Shown here: positions 8,010 through 16,600 of the stretch, one piece after another
Numbering within the stretch: the stretch's first letter is position 1
How the letters are laid out: each line of letters begins with the position of its first letter
Source of the DNA: Bacillota bacterium
Lineage (GTDB): Bacteria > Bacillota_A > Clostridia > DSM-8532
Assembly: GCA_023424865.1 (NCBI GenBank)
Contig: JAFADM010000374.1
Location: forward strand, 1 to 20,680
Length of the DNA stretch: 20,680 bases
Reading direction: 5' to 3'
Notes under the pieces: model-generated
Databases searched by the model: none
The model's input: only the letters and a program-made list of their open reading frames with translations
Told to the model about the DNA's origin: nothing
Made by a program: the position numbers and the translations under genes

Positions 8010-9041
8010 TTAAAGCTTGTCGAAGCAAAATTTCGCATAGGCAATTCGCTCGCGCTTCCAGGTGTAAGCGACATGAAGCTCATTATTGTCTATGGCAACA
8101 ATGGCAGGATAAGAAAAGCCTCCGGGGCCGTCCTCCAGCACATAGAGCTCCTGCCAGGTTTCTCCGTTATCGGCCGAGGAGTAAAGACTTAAGGGAGTAC
8201 GCGGGCCTTTATAGTAATTGGGCAGGTTAGGCGCGGGATTTAGGGCCACCACCAGAGCGCCCGAAGGGAGCCGGACAAGATCGAGACCGCTGTTGTTGTT
8301 GGGAAGACCTGTGGCATAGGCGGTAGACCATGTCCTTCCGCCGTCGGAGGAATCGCTTTTAAAGACGGCGGAGCTGGTGCTGCGAAGCAGCATATGAACC
8401 TTACCGGCCTCATCCTCCCACAGGGTGGGCTGGATAACTCCCTTTCCGTAACAGAAGTACTTGCTTTGGGGCCGGTGGAGGGTCTCGGCCTTGTAGCCTA
8501 CCCGGCGCAGTGGAACCAGTGTGCTTTTGCTCCAGGTTTTTCCATTATCCTCAGAGATGTCCGCAAAAGCATCCCAAAGCTCCCCTTCATAGGATGCCGG
8601 TGCAAGGATATTACCGTTTTTCAGGCGGATGGGCTTGTTTTTAACCGGTCCCCTCCCACCGGAAGTGTCCCCCGGTACCAGCTCCTGGGGAGCGGTCCAA
8701 TTTTGTCCATTGTCATGGGACAGGATGAAAAAGGTTTTCCATTCGGAGATAGCAGCACCGCATTTGTAATAGAGGACAAGGGTCTTTTCGTCCAGGCTGA
8801 AGAGTACGGGATTCCACAGTGCTGTACCCCGGGCATCCGCCACCTTCCTTGGGCGCTCCCAGCTGCCGTTTTGACGAAGGGATACCCATATTGCCACATC
8901 GGGTGCCTTTTCCCAGCTTCCGGCGAACCAGGCAGCCAGTACCCGATCTCCCGGCAAGGGGAGGAGGGTAGCGGCGTGGGCGCTGTCGAAATCCCGATCT
9001 TCTTCTATTATGTACTCTCTGGTAACTGAGGTTATTTTCAT
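8010..9041 (-). CDS. Sialidase-fold (BNR/Asp-box) exo-glycosidase-like protein
   Basis: A 343-residue protein with no signal peptide; its ATG (9039-9041) is preceded by GGAGAG. Four Asp-box motifs (S-x-D-x-G-x-x-W) are visible: SHDNGQNW (108-115), SEDNGKTW (163-170), SSDGGRTW (231-238) and SADNGETW (289-296). They mark a six-bladed beta-propeller of the BNR_2 group of predicted neuraminidases. Other family features are GPVKNKPIRLKNG, LLRST and NNNSGLDLVRLPSG. The FRIP/YRIP arginine motif of true GH33 sialidases is not seen, so cleavage of sialic acid is doubtful. Relatives often sit among plant-glycan hydrolases, and the substrate here is more likely an unusual cell-wall sugar (inference). 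It lies 85 bp after the cupin gene and 57 bp before the GH106-like gene. Confidence 0.8.
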   Translation of the reverse strand: MKITSVTREYIIEEDRDFDSAHAATLLPLPGDRVLAAWFAGSWEKAPDVAIWVSLRQNGSWERPRKVADARGTALWNPVLFSLDEKTLVLYYKCGAAISEWKTFFILSHDNGQNWTAPQELVPGDTSGGRGPVKNKPIRLKNGNILAPASYEGELWDAFADISEDNGKTWSKSTLVPLRRVGYKAETLHRPQSKYFCYGKGVIQPTLWEDEAGKVHMLLRSTSSAVFKSDSSDGGRTWSTAYATGLPNNNSGLDLVRLPSGALVVALNPAPNLPNYYKGPRTPLSLYSSADNGETWQELYVLEDGPGGFSYPAIVAIDNNELHVAYTWKRERIAYAKFCFDKL

Positions 9042-9126: not shown

Positions 9127-9477
9127 TTACACCTCGTATTCCGGACGCATGGGAGAAAAGACCTCGATGAACTCGGTATCCTCCAGAGCTTCTGTGCTGT
9201 GATATTCCATGGAATCCCAGACATAGCCTCCACCGGGACCGATTTCTCCTTCCTCGTAAACCTTTTTGTCCGAATCGGCCAGCTGGTATTTCAGCCTGCC
9301 CGAGAGCACGTACCCGTTCTGCACGGCTTTATGGTTGTGGATCTCAAGTTTGGATCCCTTTTTCATGGTGAAATGGCACAGCATGGTTTCGTTATTATAG
9401 GAAAGGTTGGTCTTCACAAGGCCGGGGCGCATCTCGATTTGTTTTTCAAGGGTCAGATTTGTAATCTTGCGGCTCAT
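9127..9477 (-). CDS. KdgF-like small cupin protein
   Basis: A 116-residue single-domain cupin. Motif 1 carries H47-x-H49-x3-Q53 followed by GYVLSG, motif 2 carries H93 (MEYHSTE), and the protein ends IEVFSPMRPEYEV. The two His, Gln and later His agree with the metal site of KdgF, and the closing FSPMR resembles the KdgF C-terminal active-site segment; its usual Asp two residues before that Phe is Glu105 here. KdgF opens 4,5-unsaturated uronates released from pectin or alginate to the linear keto form. The similarity suggests a role on an acidic or unsaturated sugar, but small cupins are hard to place and the exact reaction is uncertain. The ATG overlaps the stop of the transaldolase-like gene by 4 nt (ATGA), implying coupled translation. 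Confidence 0.7.
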   Translation of the reverse strand: MSRKITNLTLEKQIEMRPGLVKTNLSYNNETMLCHFTMKKGSKLEIHNHKAVQNGYVLSGRLKYQLADSDKKVYEEGEIGPGGGYVWDSMEYHSTEALEDTEFIEVFSPMRPEYEV

Positions 9478-10529
9478 AATCCCATTTCCTCCTTAAGGGC
9501 TTCAATTTCCCGGATAAGGCTGTCCCAGCCTTCAATAAACAGGCTGCGGAAAAGCGCTACCGGGGCAAAATTGGCATAATCCCCGGGGCTCAGGCCGTCG
9601 GCGCAGTAAGCACGCTTAAAATCAGGAACTTGCCGCATGAGCTCGTCAAAAACGTATTCCGCAGCCGATGTGTCCATGCGGTTGATAACAGGAGTGTCCT
9701 TAGCAATAAGCGTATGGGCATCCTTCCAGTTGAGGGTGATATGGACATGGCCACCTACGAACTCGGTAAAGTGATGGGGGCCTCTGGCGCCTCCGCCCAG
9801 AAGGATTCCCGGATATCCCTGCCTGCCCATAAGGCGGTATTGTCTTCGAGTGAGCAGGGTGCCGGCCTGGAAGAGAATATCCGGCTCGATGTTTATTTCA
9901 CCCCGATCGTACTGCATTCTCAGGCACTGGTCAAAGATACCCGCGATGCAGGTGACAAAGAAGGGCGGGGTTTTGCCTGATAAAGAGGAAGAGGATTTGT
10001 AAGTTTCGCAGGCTGCAACCACCTGGGACATACTCATGATTTCGGTGGCGATGATGGGAATATCCCGGCGCACCAGCTCGTCAATGGCCGTCAGACCCGC
10101 TTGGGTAACCGGTATTTTTGCAAGGTAGTTAGGCCCGAGGGAAATGCCTGCAAGGGCTTCGTTAACAATGCAGTCCGGATCCTCCTCTGCATAGGGATCC
10201 CCCTGGAGGGAAACCAGTCCGGCACGCCCTCGGGAGTCCTGGAACAGGGAAGAAAAGTGGCCCATTAAATTTTCTACGGCGCTTCTTTGAGCAAGAACCG
10301 CTGCCTTCCTTACATCGCCTGTGGTGTGAAGGGCCTGCTGCAGCCATTTAAGAGCTTTGGGCCGCATTTTTGGAGCTGCAAGCATTTTGGCCGTGTAGGT
10401 GGGGTTTGTGGTGCAGTGAACGGCGCCGTGGTTAATAGCCAGGCTAGCCTCCTCATCGGTAGGATTATTAATCCAGAAGCGGGTGGGGGTATAATCATGC
10501 ACCCTGTGAAAGTAGCTTTTCCTTTCCAT
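9474..10529 (-). CDS. Divergent transaldolase / fructose-6-phosphate aldolase-like protein
   Basis: A 351-residue protein of the TAL/FSA family. It starts at the ATG 10527-10529, preceded by GGAG. Visible family features are TTNPT (40-44), the Schiff-base lysine K138 in AKIPVTQAGLTAIDEL, IIATEIMSMSQ (about 159-169), and LLGGGARGPHHF near the C-terminal phosphate/acid-binding region. The K138 segment is closest to fructose-6-phosphate aldolases. The aspartate that begins the family (D in LDTSD of FSA or ADTGD of TalB) appears as Asn21 in FWINNPTD, and the TalB glutamate of STEVD is Gln109 (VSLQGD), as in FSA. The protein is longer than FSA (220) and TalB (317). It lies 12 bp after the transketolase C-half and overlaps the cupin gene by 4 nt. 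It probably makes or breaks a C-C bond in an unusual sugar; its substrate is unknown. Confidence 0.78.
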   Translation of the reverse strand: MERKSYFHRVHDYTPTRFWINNPTDEEASLAINHGAVHCTTNPTYTAKMLAAPKMRPKALKWLQQALHTTGDVRKAAVLAQRSAVENLMGHFSSLFQDSRGRAGLVSLQGDPYAEEDPDCIVNEALAGISLGPNYLAKIPVTQAGLTAIDELVRRDIPIIATEIMSMSQVVAACETYKSSSSLSGKTPPFFVTCIAGIFDQCLRMQYDRGEINIEPDILFQAGTLLTRRQYRLMGRQGYPGILLGGGARGPHHFTEFVGGHVHITLNWKDAHTLIAKDTPVINRMDTSAAEYVFDELMRQVPDFKRAYCADGLSPGDYANFAPVALFRSLFIEGWDSLIREIEALKEEMGL

Positions 10530-10541
10530 TGAATGTCTCCT

Positions 10542-11471
10542 TTAAATTTCGGCTGCAGCCCTGAGTATTGCATCCGGGCCAAGGCCGTATTTCAGTAAAA
10601 GCTCATTTCCGAAGCCGGACTCGGGATAGCAATCCTTAAGCCCCAGCCGAGTAACCCGGCAGGGATAATGCTCCGAGGTAAGTTCGCATACTGCGCTTCC
10701 CAGTCCGCCGATAATGTTGTGATCCTCCACGGTTACAATACGGCTGCAACGGCGTATAAGGGGAAGCAGCGTATCACAGTCAAGAGGCTTTATGGTGCTG
10801 ACATTTACAAGTGTTACACCCACACCCTGCTCAATAAGGGCCTTTGCAGCCGTAAGTGTATTGGCCAGCACGCTTCCGCAGGCCAATAGCAGCACATCGT
10901 CGCCCTGGGAAAGGAGAACGTCGGCATTAAGCGCATCGGGTGCTTCCTGACTATAAATAACAGGATCACGGCCGCTTCCAATGCGGACGTAGACAGGACC
11001 TGGAGTTAAGTAGGCAGCCTGCACAGCCTTTTTGGTCTGCTTTGCGTCGGCAGGAGCAAGGACTCTGATGCCTGGTATACTCCTTAAAATTCCTAAATCC
11101 TCAAAAAACTGGTGTGTAACACCCTCTCTTTCACCTGCCGACATGCCTGCATTTGCACCGAAAAATTTAACATTCAAACCGGGATAGGCAACAAAGGTGC
11201 GCATTTGCTCGCATGCCCGCATAACGGCAAAGCCCGCGTAGGTGCAAACATAGGGAACCATGCCAGCGGAGGCAAGCCCCGCTGCTGTCATGACGGCATT
11301 CTGCTCGGCGATACCGACCTCAATGACCCGGCCGGGGAATTCCGCCTGTAGTTCCTGAGCCCGGAAAACAGCGATAGAATCCGCACTGACCATCACTACC
11401 CTTGGATCCTGCCGCATCAGCTCTATGAGACCGGCGGTAAAAAAAATCCTTGTGCTTTCAAATTCAGTCAT
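10542..11471 (-). CDS. Transketolase, C-terminal (pyrimidine-binding) subunit
   Basis: A 309-residue protein that matches the second half of a split transketolase. It carries the catalytic glutamate E56 in EVGIAEQN, which activates thiamine diphosphate in the family. Other features are the helix PYVCTYAGFAVMRACEQMR, the substrate loop GVTHQFFEDLGILRSIPG (H120), and a C-terminal Rossmann-like domain. The start ATG (11469-11471) follows AGGAGG by 8 nt and overlaps the N-half gene by 8 nt, so the two subunits are made together and should assemble as an alpha2beta2 enzyme. Split transketolases of this kind are commonly specialised, for example in apulose-4-phosphate or sulfofructose routes, whereas housekeeping transketolase is usually one chain. 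The ketose transferred here is unknown. Confidence 0.9.
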   Translation of the reverse strand: MTEFESTRIFFTAGLIELMRQDPRVVMVSADSIAVFRAQELQAEFPGRVIEVGIAEQNAVMTAAGLASAGMVPYVCTYAGFAVMRACEQMRTFVAYPGLNVKFFGANAGMSAGEREGVTHQFFEDLGILRSIPGIRVLAPADAKQTKKAVQAAYLTPGPVYVRIGSGRDPVIYSQEAPDALNADVLLSQGDDVLLLACGSVLANTLTAAKALIEQGVGVTLVNVSTIKPLDCDTLLPLIRRCSRIVTVEDHNIIGGLGSAVCELTSEHYPCRVTRLGLKDCYPESGFGNELLLKYGLGPDAILRAAAEI

Positions 11472-12288
11472 GCAGCATACCTCCTAAGGCGTTGACGGCG
11501 TCGGCATATTCCTCTTTGGTGGGTGTACGCTTATGCCAGGCGTTGTTATGCTCCATAAAGGGGACGCCCTTACCCTTTATTGTGCGGGCAATGATGCAGG
11601 TGGGCGTGTCCTCGCAGGCCCGGGCCTTCTCGGCCGCATCCAAAATGGCAGCGTAATCGTGCCCGTCTATGGAAAGCACATTCCATCCGAAGGCCTGAAA
11701 CTTTTCGGGGATATTGATAATTCCGCCCACGGCCTCAACCGTTCCTCCCGACTGCATGCCATTGTTGTCAATAAAGAGAGTGAGGGAACCCAGACGGTAT
11801 TTAGGTGCTGCCTGGGCGGCTTCCCAGAGCACGCCCTCCCCCAGCTCACCGTCCCCGCACAGAACATAGGTGCGGTAGTCTTTTCCGGTGAGCCTTCCTG
11901 CCATAGCCATACCGAAACCGGCACCCAGGCCATTGCCCAGAGAACCGGTGGTCATATCCACTCCGGGGGTTTTCTTCATATCGGGGTGCCCCTGCAGCAG
12001 GGAATCCATTTTGCGAAGGCTGGGGTATTCCTCTTTTGAGAAAAAGCCCTTCATGGCAAGTGCCGCATAGAGGGCGGGGCAGGCATGCCCTTTGGAGAGA
12101 ATGAAACGATCCCTGTCCGCCCACCGGGGATTTTTCGGGTCCACCTTCATTATCTTGAAATAAAGTGTTGTAATAATATCCGCCGCCGAAAGGCTTGGGC
12201 CAAGATGCCCGTCACCGCTGCGGTATACCATTTCGATGGCATCCAGGCGCAGCTGGGCAGCGGTACCGGAGAGTTCACAGGGAGTCAT
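11464..12288 (-). CDS. Transketolase, N-terminal (diphosphate-binding) subunit
   Basis: A 274-residue protein covering the diphosphate-binding half of transketolase. It has H28 in GDGHLGPSLS, KGH (66-68), the thiamine diphosphate/magnesium motif starting GDG at 145-147 and closing with DNN (174-176), and the glycine-rich GSLGNGLGAG before it. The ATG (12286-12288) follows AGGAGG at good spacing. It overlaps the racemase-like gene by 14 nt and the C-half gene by 8 nt. With its partner it would move a two-carbon ketol unit between sugars. No full-length transketolase is present in the window, so a dedicated enzyme for this operon is the simplest reading. Confidence 0.9.
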   Translation of the reverse strand: MTPCELSGTAAQLRLDAIEMVYRSGDGHLGPSLSAADIITTLYFKIMKVDPKNPRWADRDRFILSKGHACPALYAALAMKGFFSKEEYPSLRKMDSLLQGHPDMKKTPGVDMTTGSLGNGLGAGFGMAMAGRLTGKDYRTYVLCGDGELGEGVLWEAAQAAPKYRLGSLTLFIDNNGMQSGGTVEAVGGIINIPEKFQAFGWNVLSIDGHDYAAILDAAEKARACEDTPTCIIARTIKGKGVPFMEHNNAWHKRTPTKEEYADAVNALGGMLHD

Positions 12289-12979
12289 AGTTTGCCTCCT
12301 CCGAGAGTTTTTCGACTATTTTTTGAATGTCCAAAGCACCGTAACGGGGACTGGAATAGACAGGCTTTCCCGTGGCAAGGGAGATAGCCTTTTCACAACC
12401 TGCCATGGAGCCCTGAGCCAAAAGGAAGCAGTCCACCCTATCGCTTAAGGGTAGGGCTCTGGCCACCAGCAGTTCCTCCAGCTGTTGGGCTGAAACACCG
12501 AATGCGCCTTCTGCCAGCGTATCGACAAGTGTTACGTTCCGGCCTTCCTGTTCGGCCATATTCCTTATAAGCCTTTTGGTGGGCTCCAGGGTGGCGGAAA
12601 GCGTAGCGATTACGCAAATCGTTCTGTGCTCTCCCACCGCAGCCCGGGCCATGCCTTCATCGATACGGACAAAGGGAATCTGCATTTTTTCAAAAAGGGG
12701 TTTTGCTGCGTCTGCAATATCACCTACGGAGGAGCAGGCGTTGTAAACAATATGGGCTCCCTGCTGCACCGCGTGAAGGTAGAGTGCCGAAAGCCGGCGC
12801 ACCGCCGGTGGGGACGGGCTCCCGTTGACAATGGCATCTTCAATAATGTCCGGGGCGCTGAATGAAAGAAATGTGACCGGACGGTCGATGAGAACCTGTT
12901 TTATGGAACTTTCCACCAGGTTCACCAAACTTGTGGGCATGCCGGTATAAACCACGGCAATTTTCAGAGGTTTCAACAT
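12275..12979 (-). CDS. Asp/Glu racemase superfamily protein, function unknown
   Basis: A 234-residue protein. The start ATG (12977-12979) follows AAAGGAG; a longer open frame reaches back into the GntR gene and is not used. The fold is indicated by the beta-strand start LKIAVVYTGMPT, the first-half cysteine C82 in VYNACSSVGD, a central IPFVRIDEGMARAA, and ICVIATLSATLEPT in the second half. This superfamily includes amino-acid and hydantoin racemases, maleate isomerases and arylmalonate decarboxylase, which use one or two cysteines. Here the second canonical cysteine position is in LLAQGSMAG and lacks Cys, so a two-base racemase mechanism is unlikely. A one-cysteine isomerase, epimerase or decarboxylase is possible. 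Its place directly before the split transketolase ties it to the same pathway. Confidence 0.72.
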   Translation of the reverse strand: MLKPLKIAVVYTGMPTSLVNLVESSIKQVLIDRPVTFLSFSAPDIIEDAIVNGSPSPPAVRRLSALYLHAVQQGAHIVYNACSSVGDIADAAKPLFEKMQIPFVRIDEGMARAAVGEHRTICVIATLSATLEPTKRLIRNMAEQEGRNVTLVDTLAEGAFGVSAQQLEELLVARALPLSDRVDCFLLAQGSMAGCEKAISLATGKPVYSSPRYGALDIQKIVEKLSEEANYDSL

Positions 12980-16329: not shown

Positions 16330-16600
16330 ACTGTGCTAGGTGGGGAGGTAGCGGTGCCCTGTATCCGCAATCCGCTGTAGCGGGATCGAATTCCTGCCCG
16401 AGGCCTATGCGTGTAAAGTCCGTCATGCGGCAAGGTACAATGATGATTGGGTCTTGCGCAATTCAGAACTGTGAACCCCGTCAGATCCGGAAGGAAGCAG
16501 CGGTAAGCGGATCCTCTGGGTGTGCCGCAGGTTTACCTGGTTGGAGTATACTTACGCATAGCACGTTTATATTTGTAGGTCGACGGCAGGTGCACAGTTT
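16330..16600 (+). ncRNA. ffs: Signal recognition particle RNA, long form with Alu domain (ffs/scr)
   Basis: The RNA scaffolds the signal recognition particle, which delivers nascent membrane and secreted proteins to the membrane. The S-domain tip is unmistakable: GATCCGGAAGGAAGCAGCGG with its asymmetric loop and GGAA-type tetraloop region, bound by Ffh. The 5' part (GTGCTAGGTGGGGAGGTAGC... with CTGTATCCGCAATCCGCTGTAG) is the Alu-type domain with its two loops. Long-range pairing closes the molecule: CCTGCCCGAGGCC with GGTCGACGGCAGG, TATGCGTGTAAAG with TATACTTACGCATA, and ACTGTGC at the 5' end with GCACAGT (16592-16598). The length of about 270 nt fits the long Bacillota form, not the ~115-nt proteobacterial 4.5S RNA. 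TTTT after 16597 ends it as an intrinsic terminator. The 3' end is known to within a few nt. Confidence 0.95.

What the first reader, a model, noticed from the sequence alone, without database searches (positions are those of the whole stretch)
9127..12979. Five-gene module with split transketolase, FSA-like aldolase, one-Cys racemase-like protein and KdgF-like cupin, but no kinase
Five genes overlap or nearly touch (14, 8, 12 and -4 nt) between glycosidase genes. No kinase, aldose isomerase or dehydrogenase is present, so the module does not match the apiose or pentose routes I know. Split transketolases and transaldolases are known to act on sugars in which sulfonate replaces phosphate (sulfo-TK and sulfo-TAL pathways). 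By analogy, a carboxylate sugar could be used directly here. The KdgF-like cupin would open an unsaturated or acidic sugar and the FCD-type regulator would sense an acid. This proposed uronate-type ketol/aldol shuffle is inference.
Basis: partly seen in the sequence, partly recalled or inferred. Interest (0 to 1): 0.75.

Follow-up and report, generated by a model that had tools for sequence, protein, structure and literature searches.

The report
Candidate kinase-free aceric acid catabolic operon
A bacterium carries, beside an enzyme that probably frees the rare plant sugar aceric acid from pectin, a set of genes that looks like a way to break that sugar down without first phosphorylating it, a sugar for which my searches turned up no described breakdown route.

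Summary
In detail: five tightly packed genes (one-Cys Asp/Glu-racemase-like RAC, split transketolase TKN+TKC, FSA-like aldolase TAL, small cupin), no kinase. The uronate reading does not hold. The nearby GH127 is nearest the aceric acid hydrolase family, though below its cut-off, and 21 of 25 loci with such a GH127 have RAC within 100 nt of it. Over 83 loci RAC is combined with alternative downstream sets: DUF1537 kinase + BKACE, TAL + BKACE, TK with or without TAL, or (Paenibacillus) RuBisCO-like protein + kinase, closest to OiaX/OiaK of apiose catabolism. TAL and kinase never co-occur (0/11 vs 53/72). The TK is one clade without the usual phosphate-orienting Ser and His. Model: RAC isomerises aceric acid to a branched ketose, a beta-keto acid homologous to 3-oxo-isoapionate; here TK and TAL cleave it unphosphorylated, as in sulfo-TK/sulfo-TAL. 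Substrate and reactions are inferred. Against: of four GH127-clade genomes not chosen for RAC, three gave no RAC hit (one has a divergent, N-interrupted frame), and 56 of 83 RAC loci lack GH127.

The parts
12275..12979 (-). RAC: one-Cys Asp/Glu-racemase-like protein, proposed aceric acid aldose-ketose isomerase
   Evidence: PF01177 37.2 bits; AF2 model pLDDT 96.6, nearest PDB folds Glu, allantoin, hydantoin and Asp racemases, with arylmalonate decarboxylase and maleate isomerase lower in the list; Cys82 invariant, Gln189 in place of the second catalytic Cys. Isomerase activity inferred.
11464..12288 (-). TKN: thiamine diphosphate-binding subunit of split transketolase
   Evidence: PF00456 194.5 bits
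10542..11471 (-). TKC: pyrimidine-binding and C-terminal subunit of split transketolase, with R8, V35, N107, R163 at the sugar-head positions
   Evidence: PF02779/PF02780; nearest solved chain split TK of Carboxydothermus 6yaj, 226 bits; motif; clade
9474..10529 (-). TAL: FSA/transaldolase-family Schiff-base aldolase with Gln109 where transaldolase has Glu
   Evidence: PF00923 59.2 bits; AF2 pLDDT 95.4; transaldolase folds; Lys138 and Gln109 by alignment
9127..9477 (-). Small cupin; proposed ring-opening, isomerisation or decarboxylation helper (uncertain)
   Evidence: 72.6% identical cupin after TAL in L002
13096..13836 (-). GntR/FCD regulator
   Evidence: PF00392 and PF07729
13929..15953 (-). 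GH127 cysteine-glycosidase, aceric acid hydrolase clade (substrate inferred)
   Evidence: NF049879 742.7 bits vs cut-off 950; PDB best 5mqo 559.9 bits vs 340.9 or less for other GH127 chains; clade residues
8010..9041 (-). BNR_2 (sialidase-fold) protein, possibly an RG-II ulosonic acid hydrolase
   Evidence: PF13088 256.5 bits; 68% identical protein in RG-II-like locus L046
4866..7979 (-). GH106-like protein, probable alpha-L-rhamnosidase
   Evidence: PF17132 70.5 bits; 45% identical protein in L046
517..2178 (+). ABC transporter solute-binding protein
   Evidence: PF01547
3..374 (+). ABC sugar permease, cut by the window edge
   Evidence: PF00528
2455..4758 (+). AraC-type regulator of the transporter
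   Evidence: PF12833

Best explanation
The operon breaks down L-aceric acid (3-C-carboxy-5-deoxy-L-xylose), a sugar of side chain B of rhamnogalacturonan-II. GH127 frees it. RAC isomerises the aldose to the 2-ketose HOCH2-CO-C(OH)(COO-)-CH(OH)-CH3, which is a beta-keto acid and a methyl homologue of 3-oxo-isoapionate. The ketose, before or after loss of CO2 (cupin here, a TIM barrel protein in relatives, or spontaneous), is cleaved without phosphorylation. The split TK moves the two-carbon unit to an aldose acceptor and releases a three- or four-carbon product (lactaldehyde, or 3-hydroxy-2-oxobutanoate if the carboxylate is still there). TAL cleaves the next bond to give acetaldehyde and dihydroxyacetone. 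Shown by sequence: the gene set, its recurrence, the swap with kinase-dependent sets, and the altered active-site residues. Inferred: the substrate, every reaction and their order.
For: (1) GH127 is closest to 5mqo (559.9 bits; next GH127 chain 340.9); RAC-linked GH127s score 564-786 on the aceric acid hydrolase model (9 proteins) while the GH127s outside this clade score at most 530. 5mqo shares 20 of 31 residues that separate 28 clade sequences from 38 other GH127s. (2) RAC lies within 100 nt of such a GH127, same strand, in 21 of 25 loci. (3) RAC was found strongly in 0 of 37 genomes with only other GH127s (2 weak matches near 1e-15). (4) RAC loci carry either GH127 or a TRAP acid importer: TRAP in 2 of 27 with GH127 vs 29 of 56 without, p=7e-5; L014 has both by ORF clustering. 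(5) Downstream sets swap: TAL and kinase 0/11 vs 53/72; TK and kinase 0/8 vs 53/75; TK and BKACE 0/8 vs 52/75. (6) In 10 of 10 Paenibacillus loci RAC is followed by a RuBisCO-like protein and a DUF1537 kinase; for L080 their best named families are OiaX (470 bits, cut-off 700) and OiaK (495, cut-off 700), which act on 3-oxo-isoapionate and its phosphate. (7) TK residues for the sugar head group: Ser to Val/Ala and His to Asn in 8 of 8; apiose-type TKs keep Ser and have Ser for His. (8) TAL has Lys138 and Gln109, invariant in 10 TALs of RAC loci. (9) L135 has the surroundings of L001 and keeps GH127 but lacks the block RAC-TIM barrel-TKN-TKC-GntR-TAL.
Against: No GH127 here reaches the 950-bit cut-off. 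Of four clade genomes not picked through RAC, only G606 gave a RAC hit; G189, G484 and G540 did not, G540 having a divergent RAC-like frame broken by a run of N. 56 of 83 RAC loci have no GH127 nearby. BKACE normally needs a hydrogen on the carbon between the two carbonyl groups (recalled), which the proposed intermediate lacks. L036 and L052 have RAC and TK but no TAL, cupin or TIM barrel gene in the stretch seen. A sugar isomerase in the Asp/Glu racemase fold is unknown to me. The tree-corrected test of TK/TAL against kinase had only 4 pairs, p=0.125.
Confidence: 0.6

Rival explanations
1. The operon serves the same substrate, aceric acid, but RAC is not the isomerase: it is a decarboxylase or epimerase in the arylmalonate decarboxylase manner, and the cupin (or the TIM barrel protein) is the isomerase.
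For: One-Cys relatives of this fold include arylmalonate decarboxylase, which is in the fold list. Cupins and xylose-isomerase-like barrels are common sugar isomerase folds (recalled); the barrel's best named match is 5-keto-L-gluconate epimerase, weak (25.5 bits, cut-off 300).
Against: Cupin and barrel were found only in TK loci (cupin in 2 and barrel in 4 of 83), so kinase-type RAC loci would lack the isomerase. In Paenibacillus the OiaX-like protein already fits the decarboxylase role. RAC keeps the first Cys; arylmalonate decarboxylase keeps the second (recalled).
Confidence: 0.2
2. The substrate is another acidic sugar (for example another RG-II acid or a uronate derivative), and the GH127 link reflects a shared RG-II regulon only.
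For: 56 of 83 RAC loci lack GH127; some GH127-clade genomes lack RAC.
Against: Tight RAC-GH127 adjacency (21 of 25), 8 changes of GH127 linkage on the RAC tree, so the link was made or lost repeatedly, and the OiaK/OiaX-like partners.
Confidence: 0.15
3. An ordinary pentose- or apiose-phosphate pathway whose kinase is encoded elsewhere in the genome.
For: No whole genome is held for the window, so an unlinked kinase cannot be excluded. Apiose genes sit near RAC in other loci.
Against: The TK clade is separate from the kinase-linked apiose TKs (100/99) with other residues. Of the four TK-route draft genomes scanned for DUF1537 kinases, G003, G004 and G606 have none, G002 has one about 50 kb away on the same contig. 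FGGY kinases were not scanned genome-wide.
Confidence: 0.05

Closest known systems
Sulfo-TK / sulfo-TAL sulfoquinovose pathways, including the bifurcated Faecalicatena cluster (PMC11659671: abstract, sections 3.3 part 1 and 3.4)
   Same: Split TK plus transaldolase-family enzymes act on a ketose carrying an acid group instead of phosphate; Ser and His of the RSFHR phosphate motif are replaced; the second Faecalicatena transaldolase candidate also has Gln (Q111) in the catalytic triad.
   Different: Here the motif has Val/Ala and Asn, not Ala and Asp; no SQ isomerase or sulfoquinovosidase was hit; RAC and GH127 are present instead; TAL has Asn at position 21 where that candidate has Asp23 (match of positions by offset, not by alignment).
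D-apiose catabolism (transketolase route, and the OiaK/OiaX route; Carter et al. 2018, paper not held, recalled; RLP activity seen in a passage of PMC6302742)
   Same: Branched RG-II sugar; split TK in one route; a beta-keto acid, kinase and RuBisCO-like decarboxylase in the other, whose relatives sit beside RAC in Paenibacillus.
   Different: The window has no FGGY kinase or fucose-isomerase-like gene, and its TK is a separate clade.
Aceric acid hydrolase BT1003 (5mqo; identity of the entry recalled) and RG-II degradation
   Same: Nearest solved GH127 and shared clade residues. RG-II breakdown is reported to need GH127 aceric acid hydrolases, GH78 and GH33 (passage of PMC11214529).
   Different: Below the NCBIfam cut-off; what becomes of the free sugar is not covered by the passages I saw.
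Asp/Glu/hydantoin racemase superfamily (arylmalonate decarboxylase, maleate isomerase, allantoin racemase)
   Same: Fold and first catalytic Cys.
   Different: Second Cys replaced by invariant Gln; operonic partners are sugar enzymes.

Membership tests
NCBIfam NF049879 aceric acid hydrolase (GH127 gene) | Score at or above the curated cut-off of 950 bits | tested here: not met
   742.7 bits
GH127 cysteine glycosidase | Catalytic domain and Glu/Cys/Cys-Cys zinc motif | tested here: met
   PF07944 295.6 bits; ETC at 349 and CFCCP at 423
Split transketolase | Separate ThDP-binding and pyrimidine/C-terminal subunits, adjacent genes | tested here: met
Sulfo-TK (sulfofructose transketolase) | RAFDR head-group motif with SQ isomerase partner | tested here: not met
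   V/A and N at the Ser and His positions; no sugar isomerase hit in the window proteins
Apiose transketolase pathway | Isomerase and FGGY kinase beside the split TK | tested here: not met
   None in the window; separate TK clade
Asp/Glu racemase (two-base) | Two catalytic cysteines | tested here: not met
   Cys82 kept, second replaced by Gln189
Arylmalonate decarboxylase | Single Cys at the second position | tested here: not met
   RAC keeps the first position and has Gln at the second; the rule for AMDase is recalled
Transaldolase / FSA family | Schiff-base Lys | tested here: met
   Lys138 aligned to the KxPxT Lys of Neisseria transaldolase
Transaldolase (transferase type) | Catalytic Glu (Glu93 in Neisseria) | tested here: not met
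   Gln109 at that column, 10 of 10 TALs in RAC loci
KdgF | Sequence match to KdgF better than to other cupins | tested here: not met
   5fq0 E=0.012 against 1.5e-10 for 9bwf
Aceric acid catabolic enzymes | Activity on aceric acid | not testable with these tools
   Needs enzymology

The most novel reading that the evidence does not exclude
A catabolic pathway for aceric acid, in which a member of the Asp/Glu racemase superfamily works as a sugar aldose-ketose isomerase and the resulting carboxylated ketose is handled by interchangeable ends, one of them a kinase-free transketolase class of its own. The GH127-linked, TRAP-linked and Paenibacillus RuBisCO-like versions would all be forms of one pathway.
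Probability: 0.45. Interest if true: 0.85.

Novelty: new variant of a known kind. Interest (0 to 1): 0.72.

Why it matters
RG-II is called the most complex plant polysaccharide, and its hydrolases are known, but I saw no account of what becomes of aceric acid. If right, this names candidate genes for it, gives a racemase fold a new job in sugar isomerisation, and adds a second acid-sugar case to kinase-free transketolase/aldolase catabolism. It also gives a marker (RAC beside GH127) for RG-II use by Firmicutes, where most work has been on Bacteroides (recalled).

Tried and rejected
Apiose route: rejected for the window because the isomerase and FGGY kinase are absent and the TK falls outside the kinase-linked TK clade. 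Sulfosugar route: motif and partners differ. Uronate/KdgF route: cupin matches KdgF only weakly and is not conserved in relatives. Housekeeping split TK: L061 scored about equally to the window TK and the apiose TK and has the ordinary Ser and His, so I moved it out of the TK group before the counts. First counts missed the Paenibacillus kinase because of a bit threshold; one search adds it from the ORF clusters. Rows left out: L032 (short GH127) and five duplicate loci (L086, L115-L118); L137 from the RAC tree (N run); truncated loci only in the second set (55 of 83, same direction). The window's own genome is not held, so linked genes beyond the window could not be checked.
Full report
1. 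Observation. Pfam gives Asp/Glu racemase (RAC), Transketolase_N (TKN), Transket_pyr + Transketolase_C (TKC), TAL_FSA (TAL) and a borderline cupin. Neighbours are GntR/FCD, GH127, a BNR_2 protein and a GH106-like protein on the same strand, then an ABC permease, solute-binding protein and AraC regulator on the other strand; dnaX, an SRP RNA and rho lie to the right. No kinase, isomerase or dehydrogenase family was hit by the 14 proteins scanned. No tRNA was found. No whole genome is held for the window.

2. The GH127 clue. The GH127 gene's only NCBIfam match is 'aceric acid hydrolase', 742.7 bits, below the cut-off of 950. Its best solved relative is 5mqo with 559.9 bits, far above the next GH127 chain at 340.9; that 5mqo is BT1003 is recalled. 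Nine GH127s from RAC-type loci score 564-786, the lowest being the fragmentary one of L002. Identity to the window splits the same way: 28 clade sequences (window included) at 48-60% against 38 others at 28-35%. Forty-three columns separate the groups; of the 31 that I could check, 5mqo has the clade residue at 20. Among them, a His present in 38 of 38 other GH127s is Phe in 28 of 28; by its HxxY motif it should be His142 of HypBA1, a substrate-binding residue (passage of PMC10850190); the assignment is mine. RG-II breakdown is reported to need GH127 aceric acid hydrolases, GH78 and GH33 (passage of PMC11214529).

3. RAC neighbourhoods. Twenty-five loci (of 82 searched) hold both RAC and a clade GH127; in 21 they are at most 100 nt apart on the same strand (RAC first, except in L002, where GH127 is first). 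On the RAC tree GH127 linkage changes at least 8 times and the TK route 4 times (the window's own RAC is a long branch). GH127 and TRAP importers tend to exclude each other: TRAP in 2 of 27 GH127 loci against 29 of 56 others (p=7e-5); a third GH127 locus, L014, has TRAP genes by ORF clustering. This fits one acid, either freed inside the cell or imported as such.

4. Swappable ends. Over the 83 loci (L061 moved out of the TK group, see Tried and rejected): TAL with kinase 0 of 11 against 53 of 72 (p=3e-6); TK with kinase 0 of 8 against 53 of 75; TK with BKACE 0 of 8 against 52 of 75; RuBisCO-like with BKACE 0 of 10 against 52 of 73. The same directions hold in the 55 loci with 5 kb on both sides. 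Five loci pair TAL with BKACE (L016, L040, L050, L070, L071). The TIM barrel gene (PF01261) was found in four loci, all of the TK group; the cupin only in the window and L002. These are counts over related loci; a tree-corrected test had only 4 independent pairs and cannot reach significance (p=0.125). Sixteen loci had neither kinase nor TK nor TAL in view, several of them short.

5. Whole-genome checks. Of 44 GH127-bearing genomes searched for RAC, 7 have a clade GH127: G002, G003, G004 (found through RAC) and G606 have RAC; G189, G484 and G540 gave no hit. G540 has a divergent RAC-like frame, broken by a run of N, between DUF1537 and BKACE genes beside GH127. The other 37 genomes gave 2 weak matches (3e-16, 2e-14) and no strong one. 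In 391 genomes RAC was found in 4 (G003, G004, G606, G664) and clade GH127 in 5 (G003, G004, G484, G540, G606); without the two seeds that is 2 and 3 with one in common. G484's locus L135 shares surroundings with L001, keeps GH127 and lacks the block RAC-TIM barrel-TKN-TKC-GntR-TAL, plus two further genes; gain or loss cannot be told. DUF1537 kinases: none in G003, G004, G606; one in G002, about 50 kb from RAC; two in G540.

6. The Paenibacillus version. In 10 of 10 such loci RAC is followed by a RuBisCO-like protein and a DUF1537 kinase. For L080, the one scanned, their best families are OiaX, 3-oxo-isoapionate-4-phosphate decarboxylase (470 bits, cut-off 700), and OiaK, 3-oxo-isoapionate kinase (495, cut-off 700). 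RuBisCO-like proteins acting on 3-oxo-isoapionate-4-phosphate are described in a passage of PMC6302742. The ketose of aceric acid is the methyl homologue of 3-oxo-isoapionate (chemistry from knowledge), which is why I place RAC as the isomerase that makes it. L080 has separate apiose genes next door.

7. Active sites. TK: the residues that orient the phosphate in ordinary TK are RSFHR, and RAFDR in sulfo-TK (PMC11659671 section 3.4). By alignment the window TK and seven relatives have R, Val/Ala, Asn, R; L061, an ordinary split TK, has Ser and His; apiose-type TKs have Ser and Ser (two rows lack the Ser column). The nine TKs of this kind form one clade (100/99), apart from nine kinase-linked apiose-type TKs. 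TAL: Schiff-base Lys138; Gln109 at the place of Glu93 of Neisseria transaldolase, and N21, N22, Q109, K138, G197, R249 the same in 10 of 10 TALs of RAC loci. Gln there is the FSA-type residue (recalled), so TAL is more likely an aldolase than a transferase. RAC: confident model (pLDDT 96.6) of the racemase fold, Cys82 kept, second Cys replaced by Gln189, so a two-base racemase is unlikely.

8. Model and doubts. Aceric acid, RAC to a branched beta-keto acid ketose, then either kinase + RuBisCO-like/BKACE, or kinase-free TK and TAL. The Faecalicatena cluster, where a split TK and transaldolases are co-expressed on sulfoquinovose (PMC11659671 abstract and section 3.3), is the working precedent. 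Doubtful points: whether CO2 leaves before TK acts, what cupin and TIM barrel do, how BKACE handles a carbon without hydrogen, and why L036 and L052 show no TAL. I give 0.6 to the model as a whole; the substrate is firmer than the order of steps.

9. Literature. Searches 'aceric acid' with catabolism (6 papers), rhamnogalacturonan (56, 40 listed), rhamnogalacturonan II + transketolase (0), Bacteroides (14), isomerase (4), and a six-term search (17, 15 listed) showed, in titles and abstract starts, no aceric acid catabolic pathway. Only open-licence papers are held; the RG-II and apiose papers that matter most (Ndeh 2017, Carter 2018; recalled) are not. So novelty is claimed only within these searches.

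Noticed in passing
L063:8227-9951, L064:916-2712, L066:8178-9902, L067:819-2552, L074:8240-9964, L075:8090-9814, L077:1093-2850, L079:3-1202, L080:8219-9943, L058:19383-20660: A family of about 574 aa in 9 of 10 RuBisCO-like-type RAC loci and in L058; the L064 member has no Pfam or NCBIfam match, but the family has conserved ETC and CC motifs like the zinc-cysteine site of GH127/GH146. Possibly an unrecognised cysteine glycosidase that stands in for GH127.
   Followed up: partly
L137:11800-12620: A divergent RAC-like frame between DUF1537 and BKACE beside GH127, interrupted by a run of N.
   Followed up: partly
L071, L016, L040, L050, L070: TAL together with BKACE and no kinase in view: a further combination in RAC loci that my model explains only loosely.
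   Followed up: partly
window 16331-16597 +: Bacterial large SRP RNA, 193.4 bits, upstream of dnaX.
   Followed up: no
window 8010-9041 -: BNR_2 protein, 68% identical to one in L046, a locus that also has an apiosidase-like, GH106-like and GH78 gene; possibly an RG-II ulosonic acid hydrolase.
   Followed up: no
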